IMG/VR virus record: IMGVR_UViG_3300028045_000107
Coordinates: 1 to 23,003 of that record
Length of the DNA: 23,003 nt
Direction: 5' to 3' (one strand)
Origin: a virus
Made by a program: the position numbers and the translations under genes. Positions 3,711 through 23,003 of this stretch are shown one piece after another. Under the pieces are notes generated by a model. It was not told the DNA's origin and searched no databases. It worked only from the letters and a program-made list of their open reading frames with translations. Every line of letters starts with the position of its first letter. The first letter of the stretch is position 1.

Positions 3711-3746
3711 CTATGAAACATATAGGAACATGTTGTTTTTCGTCAT
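3711..3746 (-). pseudogene. Orphan 11-residue frame at duplicated leader
   Basis: The second leader copy opens with ATG and codons M-T-K-N-N like the gene at 2685, but the frame ends after 11 residues (MTKNNMFLYVS). It is either a remnant of a duplicated gene or a leader peptide ahead of the genes to its left. Confidence 0.4.
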
Positions 3747-3782
3747 TTTTTCTTTCCTTTCATGTATAGGTACAATAGCAAT
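3733..3782 (-). repeat. Duplicated promoter/leader segment, copy 2
   Basis: Near copy of 2672-2720. Its ribosome-binding stretch is slightly stronger (GAAAGGAAAGAAAA), but it lacks the good -35 seen at copy 1. Confidence 0.72.
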
Positions 3783-3810
3783 AAAACGATAGCCATTTTT
3801 CTTTAACTCC

Positions 3811-11858: not shown

Positions 11859-11933
11859 ATCCCCGTGGACAACCGGTCAAGTCACTGGGCTTTCATCCCA
11901 GCATAGCGAGTTCGATTCTCGCCGGGGATACCA
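11859..11933 (+). tRNA. tRNA-Glu (UUC)
   Basis: A complete cloverleaf: acceptor ATCCCCG/CGGGGAT, D-stem GAC/GTC with a CCGGTC loop, anticodon stem CTGGG/CCCAG with loop CTTTCAT (anticodon UUC), T-arm GCGAG-TTCGATT-CTCGC, discriminator A and encoded CCA. It reads GAA and GAG codons, and GAA is abundant in these AT-rich genes. It follows the broken tRNA-His-like sequence by only a few bases. Confidence 0.93.
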
Positions 11934-12097: not shown

Positions 12098-12227
12098 ATA
12101 ATATTACTAATTGTTCATAAAGTTAATTTATGAAGTATTATTGCCCTTATTTCTTCTTCCTCCTTCCATAAGAAAACGTGCAAAAAATACTTCATAAATT
12201 AATTTTACTCACAATTACTAATATTAT
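12098..12227. repeat. Long AT-rich imperfect palindrome with pyrimidine loop
   Basis: The arm 12098-12144 matches the reverse complement of 12180-12227 at about 41 of 47 positions, including an unbroken TTAATTTATGAAGTATT. The 35-base centre has a small CTTAT/ATAAG stem around an all-pyrimidine TTCTTCTTCCTCCTTCC loop. It could be a replication origin, a terminus-related structure or a large cruciform. No gene lies between the tRNA fragment and 12459. Confidence 0.72.
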
Positions 12228-12344: not shown

Positions 12345-12422
12345 TTTGTACCGCGGCTGGACCACAAACAGCAATATTGATCAGCTAAACTGGTACATTT
12401 GGTGTTTTTTGTTTAAATTATG

Positions 12423-12431
12423 TGGTATTAT
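12423..12431 (+). promoter_or_regulatory. Extended -10 promoter before RepL-like gene
   Basis: TGG-TATTAT is an extended -10 (TG-n-TATTAT) 28 bases before the ATG at 12459. It shares TGGTAT with the element at 10562. No clear -35. Confidence 0.42.
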
Positions 12432-12458
12432 TATTGGCACATTAGCCAGGAAAGAACT

Positions 12459-12866
12459 ATGAAAGATTATTTAGACGCAAATAGATATACGCTTACAGAC
12501 AACGAAACAGGAGAAATAATGTATGTTGATAGTATTGCTAAAGAAGCTGATAAACGCTACTGGGAGAAAACGTATGCCAAAACTATAGCTGAATGCTTTG
12601 AGTTAGTTGGAAACGCACCAACTAAGGTTCTTGCACATTTTTTAAGGATTAAAGATTCTAACAATCAAATAAACGGAACTGTAAGAGAAATGGCTAAAGA
12701 TATGGAAGTGTCCAAGACTACGGTGACTAGAGTAATGAGCGTATTAACAGAAGCAGGTTTTATGAAGAAACGTAGAAGCGGTTGTTATATGCTATCTCCT
12801 GACGTAATAAAGCACGGCAGTAGAGGTAAAGGAATTATGGTGTTAATGTTATGGAAAGGCTTGTAA
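12459..12866 (+). CDS. RepL-like winged-helix replication/regulatory protein
   Basis: 135 residues with the layout of the RepL plasmid replication family: an N-terminal NETGEIMYVDSI segment, a helical middle, then a winged helix-turn-helix (GTVREMAKDMEVSKTTVTRV, about 75-94; MSVLTEAGFMKKRRSGCYML for the third helix and wing). RepL proteins start replication of small plasmids; in a phage such a protein may bind an origin or act as a regulator. AGGAAAG before the ATG at 12459 makes it preferable to an ATG 39 bases upstream. It lies just downstream of the large palindrome, a natural binding target. Confidence 0.75.
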   Translation: MKDYLDANRYTLTDNETGEIMYVDSIAKEADKRYWEKTYAKTIAECFELVGNAPTKVLAHFLRIKDSNNQINGTVREMAKDMEVSKTTVTRVMSVLTEAGFMKKRRSGCYMLSPDVIKHGSRGKGIMVLMLWKGL

Positions 12867-13294: not shown

Positions 13295-13540
13295 ATGACC
13301 AAAAATTTACAAGAATACCTAAAATTAGCTGATTCCAAATCTGTTGATGTGCTGCTGTGGGTACTCGATAACCGCACAAATGATAATCGGCTTTATTCCA
13401 CATTAGATTCCATAGCCGTTTCTTGTAACGTCACAAAAGTGACGGTTAGTAAGTTGTTTCAGAAATTATACAAAGCTGAATTTATATATAAAATACGAAA
13501 CGGTCAATACCAGCTAATAAATATCGATGGCATTCTTTAA
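13295..13540 (+). CDS. Second RepL-like winged-helix protein (81 aa)
   Basis: Aligns over most of its length with the RepL-like protein at 12459: LQEYLKLADSKSVDVLLWVL against AECFELVGNAPTKVLAHFLR, then SIAVSCNVTKVTVSKLFQKL against EMAKDMEVSKTTVTRVMSVL, then FIYKIRNGQYQLI against FMKKRRSGCYMLS. It lacks the N-terminal 50 or so residues of its paralogue. There is no ribosome-binding site before the ATG (nor before a TTG at 13265), so it may be a truncated gene. Its end overlaps the next gene by 14 bases. Confidence 0.6.
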   Translation: MTKNLQEYLKLADSKSVDVLLWVLDNRTNDNRLYSTLDSIAVSCNVTKVTVSKLFQKLYKAEFIYKIRNGQYQLINIDGIL

Positions 13541-13946
13541 AAGAAAAGATATTGGCCGGGTGTATATCATTAAGATGGTGTTGCCTGATGGGTGTATTGT
13601 GCATAAAATTGGAATGACACACTCTAACCGGGCTACTGATCGTATGATGGAAATACTCAGGTCCTGGTTTACCAGGTACCGGTTTGTCCCATATAGTGAA
13701 TTACGCCTGGATATGGAATGTAACTACCCTGGTGATCTTGAGAAACATATTCACCGGATACTGAAAAGTAAAAGATTTGAACCAGATGAGAAGGTTGAAG
13801 GAGGTACTGAGATGTTTACCGAAATCAACGAAGTACGAGTTATCCATTACCTAAGAAATTTTGATGAGGCTTCAGTAGATTCCTTAACCTCCTTGACTGA
13901 TACCGATTGCAGTAATATCTGCAAACTACTAACCGGAAAGAGATAA
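13527..13946 (+). CDS. GIY-YIG-related protein (T5orf172/MUG113-like)
   Basis: 139 residues with the small GIY-YIG-type core: RVYIIK (11-16) for the first strand, HKIGMTHSNRATDR (26-39) for the second strand and conserved Arg, EKHIHRIL (72-79) with the metal-type Glu, and GGTEMF (92-97), the closing motif of T5orf172-like proteins. Nuclease activity is not proven for this subfamily. I recall similar proteins next to the terminase genes of N4-like phages, so a role in genome-end processing or packaging is possible. It starts inside the previous gene and its stop overlaps the next ATG (TAATG). Confidence 0.75.
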   Translation: MAFFKRKDIGRVYIIKMVLPDGCIVHKIGMTHSNRATDRMMEILRSWFTRYRFVPYSELRLDMECNYPGDLEKHIHRILKSKRFEPDEKVEGGTEMFTEINEVRVIHYLRNFDEASVDSLTSLTDTDCSNICKLLTGKR

Positions 13947-14662
13947 TGGGCGAAGCTAAAGCAAGTAAGACAGCAATCCTGACCAAAGACCAAATGCTCA
14001 GAGTATTGCCTAAAAGGTTAAAAGGAAATTATACAGATGCTATTTTGGATTCTGTAAATAAGTGTGCTCAGGACCAGAGCTTCAGAGAGTTCTTTAGGGA
14101 TAATGTTTTAAGCTATACAAGCGTAATGCAGTCAGGAAGGTACAAATTAACTTCCTATGTCAGTGCTGTAAAATATGTCAGTCATAAACTATTGGGTGAT
14201 AAGGATATAGAAGCCTACGCAAAAACCTTTCCTGATAGGTATCAAAGGATGAAAGATGAGGGCAATAGTCAAAACGTTATAGCAAGTTTTGCCAGTGCCT
14301 TTAAGAAGAATAAGCTAGTACAAGGTGTGTTTGAGCAGAGCATAATGCCTACTCACATACTAAATGCAGACCTATTCCAAAAAGCTATTAATACTCAAGC
14401 TGAACTAATGATGAATGCTAGAAGCGAGAAAGTTAGATCTGATGCGGCTAGCAGTTTAATGATGCACCTTAAACCGCCAGAAACCAAGAAAATAGAGTTA
14501 GATATAGGACTTAAGCAGGATCAAAGTCTTGCCGATTTGAGAGAAGCTACTGGGGAATTAGTTCGAATGCAAAGAAAACAGATGGAAGCCGGAAATACAA
14601 ATGCATTAGAAATAGCTAACAGTACTATAATTAAAACAGTGGATTCTGATGAGCAGCAGTAA
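13946..14662 (+). CDS. Probable small terminase subunit (N4 gp69-like by position)
   Basis: 238 residues, helical and rich in charged residues, directly upstream of the large terminase and overlapping it by 14 bases. In N4 the gene at this place is gene 69. The C-terminal part (SDAASSLMMHLKPPE, then a long helix to about 220) fits an oligomeric DNA-recognition subunit, but I cannot point to a helix-turn-helix with certainty. GGAAAGAGATA precedes the ATG. The assignment rests on order and shape more than on sequence. Confidence 0.62.
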   Translation: MGEAKASKTAILTKDQMLRVLPKRLKGNYTDAILDSVNKCAQDQSFREFFRDNVLSYTSVMQSGRYKLTSYVSAVKYVSHKLLGDKDIEAYAKTFPDRYQRMKDEGNSQNVIASFASAFKKNKLVQGVFEQSIMPTHILNADLFQKAINTQAELMMNARSEKVRSDAASSLMMHLKPPETKKIELDIGLKQDQSLADLREATGELVRMQRKQMEAGNTNALEIANSTIIKTVDSDEQQ

Positions 14663-16247
14663 AAAATCAGTTGAAGATTATCTTAATAGTGTTGACTATA
14701 AATTTAAAAGCTATATACCTTCTGAAGCTAGTTTACATTTTATAAATTTTATAAAACTAGTTAATGGAGCAGAAGGGGAATCTAATAAGTCTCCGGTTAC
14801 CCATTTTCAGTTGATGGACAATATATTTAGTGGTAAAACTAGATTAGCTGTTTTATGTCATCGCGGCTTTGCTAAATCAACACTGCTGACTACGTATCTG
14901 CCTTTGTATATAGCTGTGTTTGGAAAATTAGACAATTTTGGTGTAGTAAACTACATGTTAGCTGTTTTAGATAGTCAAGAAGGCGGTGCTAAAACTATGC
15001 GTAAGTCTTTAGAGATGACTTATAACAATAGTGAGTTTTTACAGCAATATATAGTAGACACAAGATTTACTGATACTTTTATAGAATTAGAAAATAGGGA
15101 TGGGCACAGATTAGGCATAAAAATGGTTGGTGCCCAGATGTCTATTCGCGGGACAAGATTTGCTAACAATACCGGTTCTCATAGACCCGAGTTTTGTATT
15201 ATGGATGATATTTTAAGCGATACTGACGCTAAATCTCCTACAGTTATAGCTAATATAGAAAATACAATACATAAAGCAGTAGATAAAGCAATGCACCCTA
15301 CCAGAAACAAGATTTGCTATATTGGTACAGTATTTTCTCAGATTGATCCACTGTACAGAGTCATAGAATCTGGTAGATGGAGTCCGAGCGTTTATCCTGT
15401 ATGTGAAAGATTTCCTTGTACAAAAGAAGAGTTTGTAGGTAGTTGGGAAGATAGATTTCCTTATGAGGTTGTAAAACGTATGTATGATGATGCTGTAGCA
15501 ATGGGAAGAATGTCAGATTTTAATGGTGAAATGATGAATAGGGTCATGTCTGATGAAGATAGGCTTATTCAGGACAGTGATATCATGTGGTACAAGCGTG
15601 GTAATGTTATGCAAAATAAGGGACTTTTTAACTTTTACATAACCACAGATTTTGCTACAAGTGAAAAAACTAGTGCCGATTATAGTGTTATTTTTGTTTG
15701 GGCTTACAACAATAAAGGAGACTGGTTCTGGGTAGACGGAGTACTTAAAAGACAGCTAATGGATGCTAATATTGATGATTTGTTTAGACTAGCTCAGCTG
15801 TATAAACCACAGCAGACAGGTATAGAAGTTACAGGACAACAAGGAGGATTTATTCCGTGGATTAAAAATGAGATGATAACCAGGAATGTGTATTTTACTT
15901 TGGCTAGTGAGAATAATAGTAATAAAGAAGGTATAAGGCCTGTTACAAATAAGTTGCAGAGATTTAATATAGTTGTGCCATGGTTTAAAACGAAAAAAAT
16001 GTATTTTCCGGAAGAGATGAAAGAAGACCCTATTATTAATGAAATTACAGAAGAATTGAGTTTGGTTAGTTTAGCAGGCATTAAAGCTAGACATGATGAT
16101 GCAATAGACACTATAAGCCAATTAGGCAGTCTTGCTCCATGGAAACCTTCTGCAGAAGTAGCCAAAAAATACAATAAAGAAAGCAATATTTGGGAAGATG
16201 ATTTTGAAGTTGATGATACAACTGGCATAGATTCCTATATTGTATAA
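14649..16247 (+). CDS. Large terminase subunit (N4 gp68-like)
   Basis: 532 residues, close to the size of N4 gp68. The ATPase half has a Walker A-type CHRGFAKST (70-78), Walker B FCIMDD (182-187) and a coupling motif CYIGTVFS (223-230). The nuclease half has the RNase H-like acidic residues: D334 in TTDFAT, E393 in GIEVTG and D483/D484 in RHDDAID. It drives DNA into the prohead and cuts the concatemer. The gene starts in the end of the probable small subunit gene. Confidence 0.96.
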   Translation: MSSSKKSVEDYLNSVDYKFKSYIPSEASLHFINFIKLVNGAEGESNKSPVTHFQLMDNIFSGKTRLAVLCHRGFAKSTLLTTYLPLYIAVFGKLDNFGVVNYMLAVLDSQEGGAKTMRKSLEMTYNNSEFLQQYIVDTRFTDTFIELENRDGHRLGIKMVGAQMSIRGTRFANNTGSHRPEFCIMDDILSDTDAKSPTVIANIENTIHKAVDKAMHPTRNKICYIGTVFSQIDPLYRVIESGRWSPSVYPVCERFPCTKEEFVGSWEDRFPYEVVKRMYDDAVAMGRMSDFNGEMMNRVMSDEDRLIQDSDIMWYKRGNVMQNKGLFNFYITTDFATSEKTSADYSVIFVWAYNNKGDWFWVDGVLKRQLMDANIDDLFRLAQLYKPQQTGIEVTGQQGGFIPWIKNEMITRNVYFTLASENNSNKEGIRPVTNKLQRFNIVVPWFKTKKMYFPEEMKEDPIINEITEELSLVSLAGIKARHDDAIDTISQLGSLAPWKPSAEVAKKYNKESNIWEDDFEVDDTTGIDSYIV

Positions 16248-16296
16248 TACGGAAATTGGGTTATACTCAACAAAATTTTACCTATAAAGGCTATAA

Positions 16297-16989
16297 ATGC
16301 TTCTAGCTGACTTGTTTAGCTATATATCCACATTAGACTCCTCATCTATAAATATAGGTGGAGATGATAACGGAGATATAGCCAGTAATCATTACCCAAA
16401 AGTTATCAATGCTATCAATTTAGCTATGATTGACCTTTATACGGAATTTCCTGTAAAAGTTCGTGGTATGACAATACAGTTGTATTCACATATTACGGAA
16501 TATTATCTTGATAGTGACTATGCAGCTACGAATACCGAATCTACTGAAGTTTATAAATACATAACTGATACGGCTAACAATCCTTTTACGGACGATGTAA
16601 TACACATAGTTACAGCATTTAATGAGGAAGGAGAAGAGTTCTATCTTAATAACGAAGAAGAATCCTTGTCCCTTTACACTCCTTCCTACGACATTCTTCA
16701 ACACCCTTATCCAAGCAGTGAAAACGCAGTATTTCTTACCTACAAAGCACTTCCGACTAAAATTCCTACCAATTCCGATGTAGATACTTATAAAGTAGGC
16801 TTACCCAGGCAATTGCTGAATTTGTTGTTAGTGTATGTAAATTATAAATTACTGTCTTCTGTTAACAAGGAAGAGTCTATGGCCAAACTTAATGAATATT
16901 TAAGTCTTGTCGCTAAAGCTAAAACCAATGGCCTATTCTTATCTGATGAAGCTGCTAATACTAAGATAGAGGATTTGAAATGGGAATAA
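16297..16989 (+). CDS. Probable neck/connector protein (N4 gp67-like by position)
   Basis: 230 residues, next after the large terminase as N4 gene 67 is, and of the expected size. The N-terminal helix-rich part (HYPKVINAINLAMIDLYTEF) and the beta-rich middle resemble head-tail adaptor proteins; the last 50 residues are helical. It acts in the virion, probably at the head-tail junction, but that is inferred from order. AAGG lies 7 bases before the ATG. It overlaps the next gene by 10 bases. Confidence 0.62.
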   Translation: MLLADLFSYISTLDSSSINIGGDDNGDIASNHYPKVINAINLAMIDLYTEFPVKVRGMTIQLYSHITEYYLDSDYAATNTESTEVYKYITDTANNPFTDDVIHIVTAFNEEGEEFYLNNEEESLSLYTPSYDILQHPYPSSENAVFLTYKALPTKIPTNSDVDTYKVGLPRQLLNLLLVYVNYKLLSSVNKEESMAKLNEYLSLVAKAKTNGLFLSDEAANTKIEDLKWE

Positions 16990-19298
16990 ATAATAACCCG
17001 GCTAACTCAGGACAAATAGTTGATGACTATATTAATACTGCTTATGATACTGTAAAAGTTGTAGCTGACAATCTTACAGAAGTTGTGAGGGTAGCTGACT
17101 TATCTACTACGTTTCAGGCTTCCTCTACTCCTCCTACCACTAGAGCCGATGGCAATCCTTTAGAATCTGGTGATCGTTACTTTAATGAAAGCAGCACAAG
17201 CATTTATACATGGGACGCTACAGGTTTAGTCTGGATAGTTGAGGGAAGTACTAATACTACTTATGAGGCAGTTACTGTAGACGTTACTATGGCAAGTACA
17301 GGAACAATCACTCTTACAAATCCTTATGTAGTAGCTGGTGATAATAAAATAATTACGGTACAAGGAGTTATACAGTATCCAGGTACAGACTACACAGAAA
17401 CTGATACCACTACTTTAGATTTTGGTGCTGGAGTACTGGTTGAAGGAGATACAATTTTTTCTATTATAGGAACTTCAGTAGCTATAAGCACTATAGATGC
17501 TGCTGCAACTACATATACTCCTGATGGAGGTATGGCTACTACCATAGCTGCTAAATTAAATTCTTTGCATTATGCTACATTAGCCGCTGTAATTGCTGAT
17601 GTTAGTAATTTGCAGTCTGGATATGTTTTAGATCTTGCGGAAAGAGTAGCTGGTAGCGGAGGCGGTTTGACAGGTGATGTTATAGCGGATACAGCCGGTG
17701 CTGCTTCTATTGCTGAAGGTGGCTTCAGGCTGATGTATTTAGGCTCTGATTTAACTTTACAGTTGAGAGTCGGTGATACTGTCAATATTAAGCAGTTTGG
17801 TGCTATTGGTGATGGGGTAACAGATGATACTGATGCTATACAAGCTGCTATTGACAGTAATTTGCCTGTCATGATTAATCAAGGTGTAACAGTATTAATT
17901 ACAGGAAATGTATATATTGGCAGTAATGTTATTTATGGTGGCGGAACTATATTGATAAGAGGAGATGCTAACTGGTCGCAACTTGGAACAGCATCAAGAA
18001 AGAATAATGGAGGGCTGTTAAGCAAATCTTGTGCTAATGCAGGGTACGGTTTGACAGAACAAGAGATACACATAAATGGTATAAATATTATACTAGAGCG
18101 AACAAATGCACTAGGCCCAGTAACAGCCCTGTTAATTGAGAATGCCAACGGCGGAGAAATAGAAGCTAATATAACGCCTGATGGTTCTACAATTGATGGC
18201 CCTCATTCTTTAGATTTATATGTAAATAATAAAAATATTGATATTAAAGGAAGATATTTAAGTGGAATAGCTGGCGGTACAACTGGATTAGCATCAATAA
18301 GGAATATAAGCACTGGTGGAAATGTTACTGAAAATATAAGAATACATGATGCCTATTTTTATAACTATGGTGATGATGAGCCTTTGGCTGTTTATAATGC
18401 CACTGGATTTCCTGGAGACACTATAAGAAACATCGTTATATCTAACTGTGTAATAGGTGGTGCAACTCGCGGTTTTGGATGGTTAAATAATGCTAATGAT
18501 GAGTATTCAGATTTCTGTGGATGTGAAATATCAAATACAGTTATTTTTATTGATAATCTCATAGACGGTGGCTCATGTTATACCGATGAAAATGTTGGGG
18601 CTAAAGCATCTAACATAGATATTATTATAAAAACAAGCACTCATACTGGCGGTGTAGTGTCCTATGGTGTTTGGTCGCGTAATCATGACGGGCTACGCCC
18701 TTCACCAGAGTTGTCGAATTGCAGGACATCTATTTTAGCAACCCCAACATCAGATACTATGTGGGGGTATTCAGGTGTGTTAGAACTACATAACTGCTCA
18801 ACATATTCTGTTACTGATGCCGGATGGAAATACTCTGTAAGAGGGATGACGGGTACAATTAATGGTGGTGAGTTTGCCTATGGTACTTCTAATGCTGTTT
18901 ATGTAGCAGACAGGATAGTATCGTCTGTTTTACATGGAACAGTAAAAAATATTAAATACGGACTACAAAAGGTCTTATTTGATATAGATATGACGCTGCA
19001 CGATGGTAAAACTCTTATAGAATATAATACAGAGGATACTGATAACGTTATGGTTGATCTTGATTTTAATGCGGTAATATCTGGAGCTACAACAGAGGTA
19101 TTGTCAAGAGTAATATTAGGTAATAATTCAACAAGTCAAAAAACATACGCTGTAGAGTATCACTTAAATCATCAGACCGGGCTAGCCCCTACAAGTTCTG
19201 ATTTCTTTAGTGCAACGTATGGCGATATAAGTAAATATGAAGTGATACGAAACTCAGCAGGAGCGGTAAGTAGATTAACAAAAGCATTAACTGTTTAA
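16980..19298 (+). CDS. Tail spike/fibre with beta-helix (pectate-lyase-like)
   Basis: 772 residues. The N-terminus (VDDYINTAYDTVKVVADNLT, 14-33, and TRADGNPLESGDRYFN, 54-69) is typical of particle-attachment parts of tail fibres. Residues 198-278 form an adaptor ending LGSDLTLQLRVGDTVNIKQF, followed by GAIGDGVTDDTDAIQAAID (274-292), the classic opening of a pectate-lyase-type right-handed beta-helix. The rest is repeat-rich with Asn and Gly turns, as in capsule-degrading or receptor-binding spikes. The active site cannot be located by eye. The adaptor also occurs in the spike at 19629. Confidence 0.9.
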   Translation: MGINNNPANSGQIVDDYINTAYDTVKVVADNLTEVVRVADLSTTFQASSTPPTTRADGNPLESGDRYFNESSTSIYTWDATGLVWIVEGSTNTTYEAVTVDVTMASTGTITLTNPYVVAGDNKIITVQGVIQYPGTDYTETDTTTLDFGAGVLVEGDTIFSIIGTSVAISTIDAAATTYTPDGGMATTIAAKLNSLHYATLAAVIADVSNLQSGYVLDLAERVAGSGGGLTGDVIADTAGAASIAEGGFRLMYLGSDLTLQLRVGDTVNIKQFGAIGDGVTDDTDAIQAAIDSNLPVMINQGVTVLITGNVYIGSNVIYGGGTILIRGDANWSQLGTASRKNNGGLLSKSCANAGYGLTEQEIHINGINIILERTNALGPVTALLIENANGGEIEANITPDGSTIDGPHSLDLYVNNKNIDIKGRYLSGIAGGTTGLASIRNISTGGNVTENIRIHDAYFYNYGDDEPLAVYNATGFPGDTIRNIVISNCVIGGATRGFGWLNNANDEYSDFCGCEISNTVIFIDNLIDGGSCYTDENVGAKASNIDIIIKTSTHTGGVVSYGVWSRNHDGLRPSPELSNCRTSILATPTSDTMWGYSGVLELHNCSTYSVTDAGWKYSVRGMTGTINGGEFAYGTSNAVYVADRIVSSVLHGTVKNIKYGLQKVLFDIDMTLHDGKTLIEYNTEDTDNVMVDLDFNAVISGATTEVLSRVILGNNSTSQKTYAVEYHLNHQTGLAPTSSDFFSATYGDISKYEVIRNSAGAVSRLTKALTV

Positions 19299-19340
19299 AT
19301 TGTAATATGTATCAACTATTTTACAAAAAAAAATATAAAC

Positions 19341-19389
19341 ATTAACCGGCGAGATTCTGCAAAAATAAAAGGCATATAAAATGGCTAAA
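19341..19389 (+). repeat. 49-base direct repeat, copy 1
   Basis: Matches 21485-21533 with a single difference. It covers 40 untranslated bases, an AAAGG ribosome-binding site and the first three codons (M-A-K) of the small gene at 19381. Confidence 0.92.
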
Positions 19390-19503
19390 GAAAAATATAT
19401 AAGATCAGCAGCAACTGCTGGAAATTATTTAGAAATTACATGTATAGAGGCTGGGATCTGGGATGTTGTGGTTGATACCGGCACATGGGGCTACGAGGCT
19501 TAA
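19381..19503 (+). CDS. Small tail-region protein (40 aa)
   Basis: Begins MAKEKYIRSAATAGNYLEIT and ends DTGTWGYEA. It has the same leader and first codons as the gene at 21525. It could be a small spike accessory protein or the leftover start of a gene split when the second spike cassette was inserted. The following 19504-19628 holds only a 15-codon frame. Confidence 0.55.
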   Translation: MAKEKYIRSAATAGNYLEITCIEAGIWDVVVDTGTWGYEA

Positions 19504-19562
19504 TAACATTATGACAAGCACAATTGAAAGTCGCTTAGGCGGCTGGACTAGAGTTTAATCAA

Positions 19563-19578
19563 GAGGGCTGATTCCCTC
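19563..19578 (+). other. Small hairpin before second spike gene
   Basis: GAGGG-CTGATT-CCCTC, a 5-bp stem with no U-run, 50 bases before the spike ATG. It may be a weak terminator or RNA-stability element. Confidence 0.4.
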
Positions 19579-19628
19579 CTATAACAGTAGTTTACAATAA
19601 TTACTAAAAAGCATAAGAGATATTTAAA

Positions 19629-21479
19629 ATGGTTACTAAAGTAAAAGGCAGTGTCAGGGCAGATGGCAACTATGACAATCTAGATGATGCTGTTGCAGAT
19701 GCAGCTGACCTATCAATTGGTGATGTGCTGATATTAAAAGAGCGCACTAGTGGATACGGTGGTGGCGGAACATGGGATGTTATTACAGATATTGGAAACG
19801 CTTTAGCCATTGCAGACGGACAGCATAGTGTAATCACTCTAGGCGCTGATTTAAGTCTACAACTAAGACCTTCTCTAACAGTAAACGCTGCACAGTTTGG
19901 TGACATGGGCGCAGCAGATAGAACTGATACAGTTCAAGCGGCTATAGATTACGTGAAAGACTTGGCTATAGCAACGATGGGTACTAGTGGTGGGGGTGGA
20001 ATAGTAAATATAAACTATGGCGTTCATCCAATAACAAAGATAACAAGACGATCAGGTGTTTCAATAATTGGTCAGGGGTCTTTTAGCACATTCTTCACAG
20101 CTTTAACATTAACCGAATCAGATCCTTATGGAATGGTAGAGATTGAGGAAGGCCCTGTTGTTGGCTCACACATGAAAGGAATTACTTTTTGCGGAGGCAA
20201 TACAATTTCAGCTTTAGTGCCTGTAAATACTAATCAGTGGGGGCATTATATTCATGCAAAATGGGATGCAGGCTATACTTCTGGTGGCCTTTGGTTGTGC
20301 AATCATGAGGATGTTTATTTTAAACATTTCAATTACGGTGTATGGTCGCGAGGTGGATATACTACTGCTCACTCATCAAGACCTAACCAATTTTTAAAGT
20401 TTATTAACTGTTTTTGTCTAGTTGCGGACGGTGGTGAATCGTTAAGGCTTACAGGACAGCATGGGCAAATAGAGTTTACAGGAGGGGATTATTCAGGTCA
20501 TGCAAATATAAAAGCAGCATTAGCTGTTGCTATTGACTACGATCCCGATCCCTCTACAACAGCCGATGACGCTAGCGGTTCAGGAGAGTCTACTTCAGAT
20601 ATTTCTGGAGTAGGTAGCGCAATAAGAACACCAGCGAACGTAGCATTTAATGGCGGGATGGCTATACAGAGATCGGGTTATGGTGTTTATGCTAGAGATT
20701 GCCAGAATATAAGCTTTGATGAAGTATGGTTTGAGTCTTTAGGTGGCGCAGTAGAGTTAAGTTCAGCAGGGTCTTTAACTATTAGTTATAGCAGGCTAGC
20801 GAATGCTGGTGACGGTGATAGATTAACTACTCCATCGACAGGAAATGGATGGCTGCTAAAACAAGGATCAACTTCGAGTATTGAATGGGGACAGGGAAAT
20901 TTTGTGACAGGAACTACAGATAACTGGCTAGATCCTACTGCAAACTTAACAAATATAAGCACTTCTAAATTCAGTAGAGCGCAAGTGTCAAGCAAAGATA
21001 TGATAGTAGCCGCAACACCATACGCGGTCACTGTAGGTGCTTCTGGTGACATAAACACAAAAGGGCATGATATGGTGTATGTGACATCAAACGCGAACAA
21101 AGCAGTCTTTTTGATAGATATTGATAGTTATCTAGTGCCAGGGAATGATCTGGTTATTTATGCAACAGCGGGTGCTGTGACATTTAAAAATACCGGTAAT
21201 ATAAGACCCCCTAGAAATGCTAACACAGTTACAATTGGTCATGGCACATACGCGACATTAAAACGAATACATAAACTGTCAGGATTTGAATGGTTTATTA
21301 CATCAATACAGGATGAATATAATACAGCGGCCCCAACAAGCGGAGAGTATTATCATAAAGGAACAGTTATTAGAAACACTCTTGTATCTGCCGGTGGGTC
21401 TCCTGGCTGGATAGTGACCACAGCTGGACTAGCTGGAACAACAGCAGTATTTAAAGCACTAGCGAATGTAGCTGCCTAA
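19629..21479 (+). CDS. Second tail spike with beta-helix, lacks particle-anchor domain
   Basis: 616 residues. Residues 15-95 match the adaptor of the first spike (YDNLDDAVADAADLSIGDVL... and LGADLSLQLRPSLTVNAAQF), then DRTDTVQAAID (98-108) opens a beta-helix. The N-terminal attachment region of the first spike is missing, so this protein probably docks onto another fibre rather than directly onto the tail. The C-terminal 50 residues (APTSGEYYHKGTVIRN, SPGWIVTTAG) resemble the end domain of many depolymerase spikes. Flanking 49-base repeats mark it as a cassette. Confidence 0.88.
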   Translation: MVTKVKGSVRADGNYDNLDDAVADAADLSIGDVLILKERTSGYGGGGTWDVITDIGNALAIADGQHSVITLGADLSLQLRPSLTVNAAQFGDMGAADRTDTVQAAIDYVKDLAIATMGTSGGGGIVNINYGVHPITKITRRSGVSIIGQGSFSTFFTALTLTESDPYGMVEIEEGPVVGSHMKGITFCGGNTISALVPVNTNQWGHYIHAKWDAGYTSGGLWLCNHEDVYFKHFNYGVWSRGGYTTAHSSRPNQFLKFINCFCLVADGGESLRLTGQHGQIEFTGGDYSGHANIKAALAVAIDYDPDPSTTADDASGSGESTSDISGVGSAIRTPANVAFNGGMAIQRSGYGVYARDCQNISFDEVWFESLGGAVELSSAGSLTISYSRLANAGDGDRLTTPSTGNGWLLKQGSTSSIEWGQGNFVTGTTDNWLDPTANLTNISTSKFSRAQVSSKDMIVAATPYAVTVGASGDINTKGHDMVYVTSNANKAVFLIDIDSYLVPGNDLVIYATAGAVTFKNTGNIRPPRNANTVTIGHGTYATLKRIHKLSGFEWFITSIQDEYNTAAPTSGEYYHKGTVIRNTLVSAGGSPGWIVTTAGLAGTTAVFKALANVAA

Positions 21480-21484
21480 TTTTA

Positions 21485-21533
21485 ATTAACCGGCGAGACT
21501 CTGCAAAAATAAAAGGCATATAAAATGGCTAAA
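21485..21533 (+). repeat. 49-base direct repeat, copy 2
   Basis: Second copy of 19341-19389 (one C/T difference), 6 bases after the second spike stop. It supplies the ribosome-binding site and start of the gene at 21525. Confidence 0.92.
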
Positions 21534-21881
21534 CTAAAAATAGTAAAAGACTTCTCCCAGGGAGATAGTTTTAAAATTAAAATATTACATAATCCTACTA
21601 AGGATCTTACTGGTAGTAGTATTGTATTTACGCTTAAAAAACATGAAAACTCTACTACAGATATTCTAAAAATTACGCATGCTGTAGGTGATGATGCTGA
21701 TGATATTGCAACTAATGGTTTAGCTTATCTGTCAGTAGCTTCCGGAGATACAGAGAGTATTCCTGCAGGTAAGTATTTCGGTACCTTAAAAAGGATAATA
21801 GGTACGGATGTATTCACTATTATGAGAAGTGGTAAAGATAATGTAGAATTAGTTGAAGTATTTGAAAATGTGAATGCATAA
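21525..21881 (+). CDS. Small tail/fibre-associated structural protein
   Basis: 118 residues, beta-rich: MAKLKIVKDFSQGDSFKIKI, then LTGSSIVFTLKKHE and IPAGKYFGTLKRIIG. This resembles the Ig-like N-terminal fold of BppU-type receptor-binding or upper-fibre proteins in general pattern only. It sits between a spike gene and another fibre-type gene, so a virion role is likely. It ends 2 bases before the next ATG. Confidence 0.65.
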   Translation: MAKLKIVKDFSQGDSFKIKILHNPTKDLTGSSIVFTLKKHENSTTDILKITHAVGDDADDIATNGLAYLSVASGDTESIPAGKYFGTLKRIIGTDVFTIMRSGKDNVELVEVFENVNA

Positions 21882-21883
21882 TC

Positions 21884-22537
21884 ATGGGAATAGTAATACA
21901 AGAAGTAGAAGAAATTATAGTAGAGGAGGGTGATACTTCTATTACTATACAAACAGTTCCTGATGCAGCTATAGAAGGAGATTTAATTATACCTCACTCT
22001 AGGCTTACAGACTTGTCTGCTGATGACCATACACAGTATTGGTTACGTACAGACACCCTTTACAGTAATTCAGATATTAAAATTTCGTATGAAGCTAACT
22101 CAGATACTAATGCTTTTACAGATGCTTATAAAACTAAGTTAGATGGTATAGCTGCTGGAGCTAGTGCAACCCCTTCTGCTAATACTATTAAGTCATTGTA
22201 CTTAAGTAATTTAGACACAAATAACTATGATGATGATGCTCAGACTGCTGTCTCTGGCCTTACGAATACAATTACAGTAACTGCTGATGGTGCTGTAGAC
22301 GTTAGCAACCTGGCTGTATTTATAGATGCAACGTCTAATGATATTACCCTTACATTACCTACTGCTGCAGGAATAACAGGAACATCTATAAACTTAAAAA
22401 GAGTAGACGTGACTGTTAATACCGTTTTAATTGAAACAACCAGCACAGAGACTATAGACAGCAGTACCGGAGCTATACTGGCTACAAACCAAAATTTACT
22501 GCTAGTAAGTGATGGTACTAATTGGAGAATACTATAA
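21884..22537 (+). CDS. Tail fibre/collar-type virion protein
   Basis: 217 residues. HSRLTDLSADDHTQYW (about 38-53) is a motif widely seen in tail fibre and collar proteins, followed by FTDAYKTKLDGIAAGA, another common fibre segment that often precedes a coiled coil. The C-terminal 90 residues form a repeated beta pattern ending SDGTNWRIL, as in trimeric fibre end domains. It overlaps the next gene by one base. Confidence 0.75.
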   Translation: MGIVIQEVEEIIVEEGDTSITIQTVPDAAIEGDLIIPHSRLTDLSADDHTQYWLRTDTLYSNSDIKISYEANSDTNAFTDAYKTKLDGIAAGASATPSANTIKSLYLSNLDTNNYDDDAQTAVSGLTNTITVTADGAVDVSNLAVFIDATSNDITLTLPTAAGITGTSINLKRVDVTVNTVLIETTSTETIDSSTGAILATNQNLLLVSDGTNWRIL

Positions 22538-23003
22538 TGAGCTATTTAGAAAATATTTCCTATGCCTTAAAAATAGCTAAAGGAGAAATACCGGGTACTG
22601 CACAGATTAGTAAATTCGGTAGGTTAACTAATATCGATACAGTAGATACTTTCCCTAAAGACTTATGGAACGGAGATGCTGTTTACTCCGGCTTTCCTAC
22701 AGGTGCTGCTGAAACTATGGAAATATTCTCTTCTGATGCTACTGATACAAGTGTAGGTACAGGTGCAAGAGAGGTTGTTGTACGGAATTTACTAGACGAA
22801 AATGGTGTACTTATGCCTGATATCACGGTAGCTCTTAATGGAACTACCCCGGTATCTTTAGGAGCACAAACATACAGCAGATGCAGTCGTGTATGGGTAT
22901 CTGATGTGGGTAGTGGAGAAGCAAATGCAGGAGAAATTACGTTAAGGCATACTACAACTACAACTAATATTTTTGCTCTAATGCCCATAGGGTTTAATGC
23001 TAC
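22537..23003 (+). CDS. Virion structural protein, 3' end beyond window
   Basis: The ATG overlaps the previous stop (TAATG) and the frame is open to the window edge (155 codons seen). DLWNGDAVYSGFPTGAAETM (about 43-62), FSSDATDTSVGTGAREVVV and a later GEITLRHTTTTTNIFALMPI match a family I know as phage virion proteins of the head or tail-fibre region. The exact virion location is not clear. Confidence 0.72.
   Translation, partial: MSYLENISYALKIAKGEIPGTAQISKFGRLTNIDTVDTFPKDLWNGDAVYSGFPTGAAETMEIFSSDATDTSVGTGAREVVVRNLLDENGVLMPDITVALNGTTPVSLGAQTYSRCSRVWVSDVGSGEANAGEITLRHTTTTTNIFALMPIGFNA

What the first reader, a model, noticed from the sequence alone, without database searches (positions are those of the whole stretch)
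19341..21533. 49-base direct repeats bracket the second spike as a swappable cassette
The repeats differ at one base, span the leader, ribosome-binding site and first codons of two different genes, and enclose the small gene plus the second spike. Recombination between them would remove or exchange the spike while leaving a translatable gene start each time.
Basis: seen in the sequence. Interest (0 to 1): 0.6.

Follow-up and report, generated by a model that had tools for sequence, protein, structure and literature searches.

The report
Duplicated gene leader in phage spike island
A bacterial virus carries two near-identical 49-base copies of a gene "start signal" on either side of its second host-recognition spike; the spike region really is swapped between close relatives, but the swaps run through long shared genes on each side, so the copies look like a leftover of recombination rather than a dedicated swapping device.

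Summary
19341-19389 and 21485-21533 match at 48/49 bases, ending at the same ATG-GCT-AAA gene start, and enclose a 40-codon ORF and a 616-aa spike. The longest exact match is 34 nt against at most 19 in 200 simulations. The contig is a fragment of an N4-like phage (Schitoviridae). A same-species relative, L003, shows the site is hypervariable: both spike enzymatic domains and the small gene are replaced between window 17770 and 21528. The right edge falls in codon 2 of p118, inside repeat copy 2. L003 and an outgroup (L029) start p118 with MS and other leaders, so the 49-nt leader on p118 is probably acquired. The left edge is inside spike 1, not at copy 1. Divergence is 6-7% from 16638 and up to about 22208, and 0.1-1% beyond, and L025 is a recombinant in the right flank: exchange uses long flanking homology. 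The leader occurs in no relative searched. Best reading: a duplicated leader left by modular assembly of a receptor-binding-protein island. It could mediate deletion of spike 2, but no deletion form was seen. Modest interest; a known kind of locus.

The parts
19341..19389 (+). Repeat copy 1 (leader A): leader, Shine-Dalgarno-like AAAAGG, ATG GCT AAA of the 40-codon ORF
21485..21533 (+). Repeat copy 2 (leader A): leader, AAAAGG, ATG GCT AAA of p118; the switch point to L003-like sequence is at codon 2 (21528/21529)
19381..19503 (+). 40-codon ORF (MAKEKYIRSAATAGNYLEITCIEAGIWDVVVDTGTWGYEA), no detectable homologue, possibly a remnant or chimera
19613..19654 (+). 42-nt island identical in L003 (leader B, start and first codons of spike 2)
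19629..21479 (+). Second tailspike (616 aa): about 80-aa adaptor domain shared with spike 1, then a domain unrelated to the L003 allele
16980..19298 (+). First tailspike (772 aa): conserved N-terminal anchor (aa 1-196), adaptor (about 197-265), then a variable pectate-lyase-like domain
17560..17770 (+). Left switch points of spike alleles: L006 diverges at 17560, contig L005 ends at 17650, L003 diverges at 17770
21525..21881 (+). p118 (phrog_1084, unknown function), conserved gene bounding the island on the right
16638..22208 (+). Exchanged tract between window and L003 by change-point analysis: 0.13% divergence to the left, 6.1% and 7.4% in the edges of the tract, 1.0% to the right; unrelated in the middle

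Best explanation
The repeat is a duplicated gene leader (about 40 nt of 5' untranslated DNA with the ribosome-binding site and the first three codons) at the right-hand joint of a hypervariable receptor-binding-protein island in an N4-like phage. Shown: spike 1's distal domain, the small gene and the second spike vary as a block between phages that are otherwise about 94-100% identical; p118 carries a leader and second codon unlike its relatives, identical to those of the small ORF. Inferred: when this spike set was put together, a recombination joint at the start of p118 (short similarity ATGnCTAAAnnAAAAATA) gave p118 the leader already present in front of the small ORF. Between co-infecting phages the island is exchanged mainly by homologous recombination in the conserved neck/spike-1 N-terminus and p118/p217 flanks. 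The repeat pair could also allow loss of spike 2 by slippage or strand annealing, leaving spike 1 - leader - p118 intact; this is a prediction only.
For: L003 alignment: 98% identity to window 17770, unrelated to 21528, then 95.7%. p118 starts MA with leader A in the window, but MS with other leaders in L003 and L029. Leader A occurs only twice and in no relative, viral contig, phage record or genome searched. Change-points at 16638 (3/2397 to 69/1133 mismatches) and about 22208 (50/679 to 8/796); L025 is L003-like to 22383 and window-like from 22643. L005 and L006 match at 99.8% and then end or diverge inside spike 1; L024-L027 begin just right of the island. In L003 p118 likewise shares its leader with a cassette gene (ATAAGAGATATTTAA before spike 2 and p118).
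Against: Only two sequences span the whole island at species level (window, L003), so the direction of the leader change rests on one close relative and one outgroup. The source of leader A is unknown. Conservation of 48/49 bases could also reflect selection on a functional leader. Elevated divergence in the flanks could partly be faster evolution of tail genes, though the sharp edge at 16638 and the L025 switch argue for recombination.
Confidence: 0.62

Rival explanations
1. Dedicated swappable cassette: the two 49-nt repeats are the joints through which the second spike is removed or exchanged in the population.
For: Position, register with start codons, and a single-spike outgroup gene order; right switch point inside copy 2.
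Against: Left switch points lie in spike 1, not at copy 1; repeat absent from all relatives and collections scanned; no similar repeat pair in the 13 relatives' loci that span neck to portal; tract edges in flanking genes.
Confidence: 0.15
2. Functional leader kept in two copies: an RNA-level or translational element giving the small ORF and p118 matched expression, maintained by selection.
For: The copies keep an identical ribosome-binding site and start register. An early-gene leader (promoter-like ATTGTACCTATACATG, RBS, first codons) is also duplicated elsewhere in the window.
Against: No stable RNA fold (z about +0.4 to +0.5), no Rfam match, no forward promoter match in it, absent from p118 of L003 and L029.
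Confidence: 0.17
3. Assembly artefact: a chimeric metagenome contig joined at a short shared leader.
For: No second contig covers both copies; related contigs break at the island.
Against: Exact identity is only 34 nt, shorter than usual long assembly k-mers (general knowledge). Flanking p118/p217/p262 is the expected neighbour as in L003, and spike 2's start matches L003 in the same order.
Confidence: 0.06

Closest known systems
Metaviromic islands of marine phages (Mizuno et al. 2014, PMC3909814)
   Same: Host-recognition genes differ completely between otherwise near-identical phages and under-assemble or under-recruit
   Different: Here the joint is resolved to the base and carries a duplicated leader; that paper does not discuss recombination (the word does not occur in its text)
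Double receptor-binding-protein systems of N4-like phage G7C and Klebsiella phages (Latka et al. 2019, PMC6872550)
   Same: An anchored first spike plus a second spike lacking the anchor, with exchangeable enzymatic domains behind conserved N-terminal parts
   Different: Both spikes here share an adaptor domain; no T4gp10-like domain was detected by Pfam, and docking was not tested
Host-recognition module of Alteromonas schitovirus A5 (PMC10579305)
   Same: Schitovirus host-recognition genes exchanged as a module
   Different: A5 uses a tail fibre and chaperone shared with other families; no leader repeats reported in the passages read

Membership tests
Schitoviridae (N4-like phages) | N4-like single-subunit RNA polymerases | tested here: met
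   phrog_2166 5.6e-58 and phrog_2051 2.3e-91
Schitoviridae (N4-like phages) | Terminase and portal of the N4-like type | tested here: met
   TerL 54-55% to N4-like phages such as Kosakonia Kc283 and Pectobacterium Nepra, Possum; portal of L003 matches PF23899 SU10_portal and finds 61 further loci
Schitoviridae (N4-like phages) | Giant virion-associated RNA polymerase | not tested
   not seen in this 23-kb fragment
Hypervariable receptor-binding-protein island | Spike genes unrelated between phages whose flanks are near-identical | tested here: met
Hypervariable receptor-binding-protein island | Under-recruitment of reads at the island | not testable with these tools
   no read data; contig ends cluster there
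Double RBP (G7C-type branched) system | Second spike lacks the anchor of spike 1 | tested here: met
   spike 2 aligns only from spike-1 residue about 188 on
Double RBP (G7C-type branched) system | T4gp10-like docking domain in spike 1 | tested here: inconclusive
   no Pfam match for the N-terminus and no PHROG of that kind; structure of spike 1 not predicted
Repeat-flanked recombination cassette | The same repeat flanks alternative cassettes in relatives | tested here: not met
Repeat-flanked recombination cassette | Deletion or exchange junctions at the repeat | not testable with these tools
   no reads; only the right switch point coincides with a copy

The most novel reading that the evidence does not exclude
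The 49-nt leader pair is an active joint by which this phage population gains and loses a second spike, with a ready-made ribosome-binding site and start restored in every product, giving mixed one-spike and two-spike particles.
Probability: 0.1. Interest if true: 0.55.

Novelty: new member of a known kind. Interest (0 to 1): 0.3.

Why it matters
It gives base-level joints for spike replacement in an uncultured N4-like phage species and separates two ideas that are easily confused: repeats that flank a variable gene, and the homology that actually carries the exchange. Here the measurable crossovers lie in conserved neighbouring genes, while gene starts (the 49-nt leader pair, the 42-nt spike-2 start island) look like smaller joints whose traces remain.

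Tried and rejected
Leader A in viral contigs, exact and with flexible spacing, phages and genomes: none. Homologues of spike 2 in viral contigs and phages and of the 40-aa ORF in phages: none; the ORF is not a p118 paralogue by profile comparison. Leader B pattern scan: apart from L003, four contigs in unrelated contexts. Adaptor-domain scans found only L003 and no genome. The spike-2 structure prediction was unusable (pLDDT 33.8), so no fold search was done. RNA structure, Rfam and promoter scans were negative for the repeat. A general rule that schitovirus spikes are flanked by repeated leaders was rejected.

Full report
OBSERVATION. The window holds a 49-nt direct repeat, 19341-19389 and 21485-21533, with one difference (T/C at offset 15), in register with the start codons of two genes. 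Copy 1 opens a 40-codon ORF (19381-19503) and copy 2 opens p118 (21525-21881); the 616-aa second spike (19629-21479) lies between. The longest exact match is 34 nt, whereas 200 simulated sequences of the same dinucleotide make-up gave at most 19. There is no third copy.

SETTING. The record is a 23-kb viral-contig fragment. Terminase (54-55% to Kosakonia Kc283 and Pectobacterium phages), N4-like RNA polymerases and the SU10-type portal of its close relative place it in Schitoviridae. No phage record is close at DNA level.

SPIKES. Spike 1 has an N-terminal part (aa 1-196) also found in the outgroup L029, a second adaptor-like part (about aa 197-265) and a variable domain that starts with a pectate-lyase-like motif. 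Spike 2 lacks the anchor and starts with a version of the adaptor part (44-57% identity over the four sequences compared), then continues unlike anything found. That it docks on spike 1, as in G7C-type branched systems (PMC6872550), is inference.

RELATIVES. L003 is 98% identical from window 14241 to 17770, unrelated up to 21528 except for a 42-nt island at the start of spike 2 and the adaptor, then 95.7% identical to the window's end. In its island L003 has another spike-1 domain, a DUF5675 gene in place of the 40-codon ORF, and another spike 2. L006 is 99.8% identical and switches to a third spike-1 allele at 17560; L005 is 99.8% identical and its contig ends at 17650. L024-L027 are contigs of the same group that begin only 0.4-1.4 kb before the portal, right of the island. 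The clustering of contig ends at the island fits strain variation, as described for marine phage islands (PMC3909814), though ends alone do not prove it.

WHERE THE SWITCHES ARE. The right switch between window and L003 is at codon 2 of p118 (ATGG|CTAAA against ATGT|CTAAA), inside repeat copy 2. The left switch is in spike 1, 1.6 kb before repeat copy 1. Outside these points divergence is uneven. Left of 16638 there are 3 mismatches in 2397 bases, then 69 in 1133 up to 17770. On the right there are 50 in 679 bases up to 22207, then 8 in 796. L025 agrees with L003 at the sites from 22083 to 22383 and with the window from 22643 on, a recombinant. The island therefore travels with flanking DNA, and the crossovers that can be seen sit in the neck gene and in p217/p262, not in the repeats.

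ORIGIN OF THE REPEAT. p118 begins MSK in L003 and MST in L029, with other leaders; in the window it begins MAK with leader A. The simplest reading is that the window's p118 acquired leader A plus codon 2 by a joint at its start, and that the same leader stands before the 40-codon ORF because both come from one module. The reverse, that the ORF is a new reading frame formed when a leader and start were copied in front of unrelated DNA, is not excluded; it has no homologue. L003 shows a weaker parallel: its p118 and spike 2 share the 15-nt leader ATAAGAGATATTTAA. Among the 13 relatives' loci that span neck to portal, L003 included, none has a repeated leader of this length.

MECHANISM AND VERDICT. 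Best supported: a leader duplication at the joint of a receptor-binding-protein island that is exchanged through flanking homology. The repeats would permit loss of spike 2 with an intact p118 start, and L029 has that gene order, but L029 is a distant relative (p118 58% identical) without leader A, so it is not evidence of such a deletion. A regulatory role of the repeat found no support in folding, Rfam or promoter scans. The finding is real and tidy, of a known kind, and the stronger claim needs reads.

Noticed in passing
2668-2721 and 3729-3783 (minus strand): A second duplicated leader in the early region: promoter-like ATTGTACCTATACATG, RBS and first codons (MTKNNM) occur before a 60-aa gene and before an 11-codon ORF that looks like a truncated copy.
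   Followed up: partly
L025 around window 22383-22643: L025 is L003-like on the left and window-like on the right, a direct recombinant between haplotypes.
   Followed up: yes
12420-12866: A RepL-like (PF05732, 3.4e-22) winged-helix protein, which I would not expect in an N4-like phage.
   Followed up: no
12098-12227: Large inverted repeat, 58-nt arms 79% complementary with a 14-nt loop, after a tRNA-Glu gene at 11859-11933.
   Followed up: no
L003:4962-5354: A DUF5675 gene sits in the spike island of L003 in place of the 40-codon ORF; loci L075 and L076 encode similar proteins.
   Followed up: no
13527-13946: T5orf172/MUG113 domain protein directly upstream of the small terminase gene.
   Followed up: no
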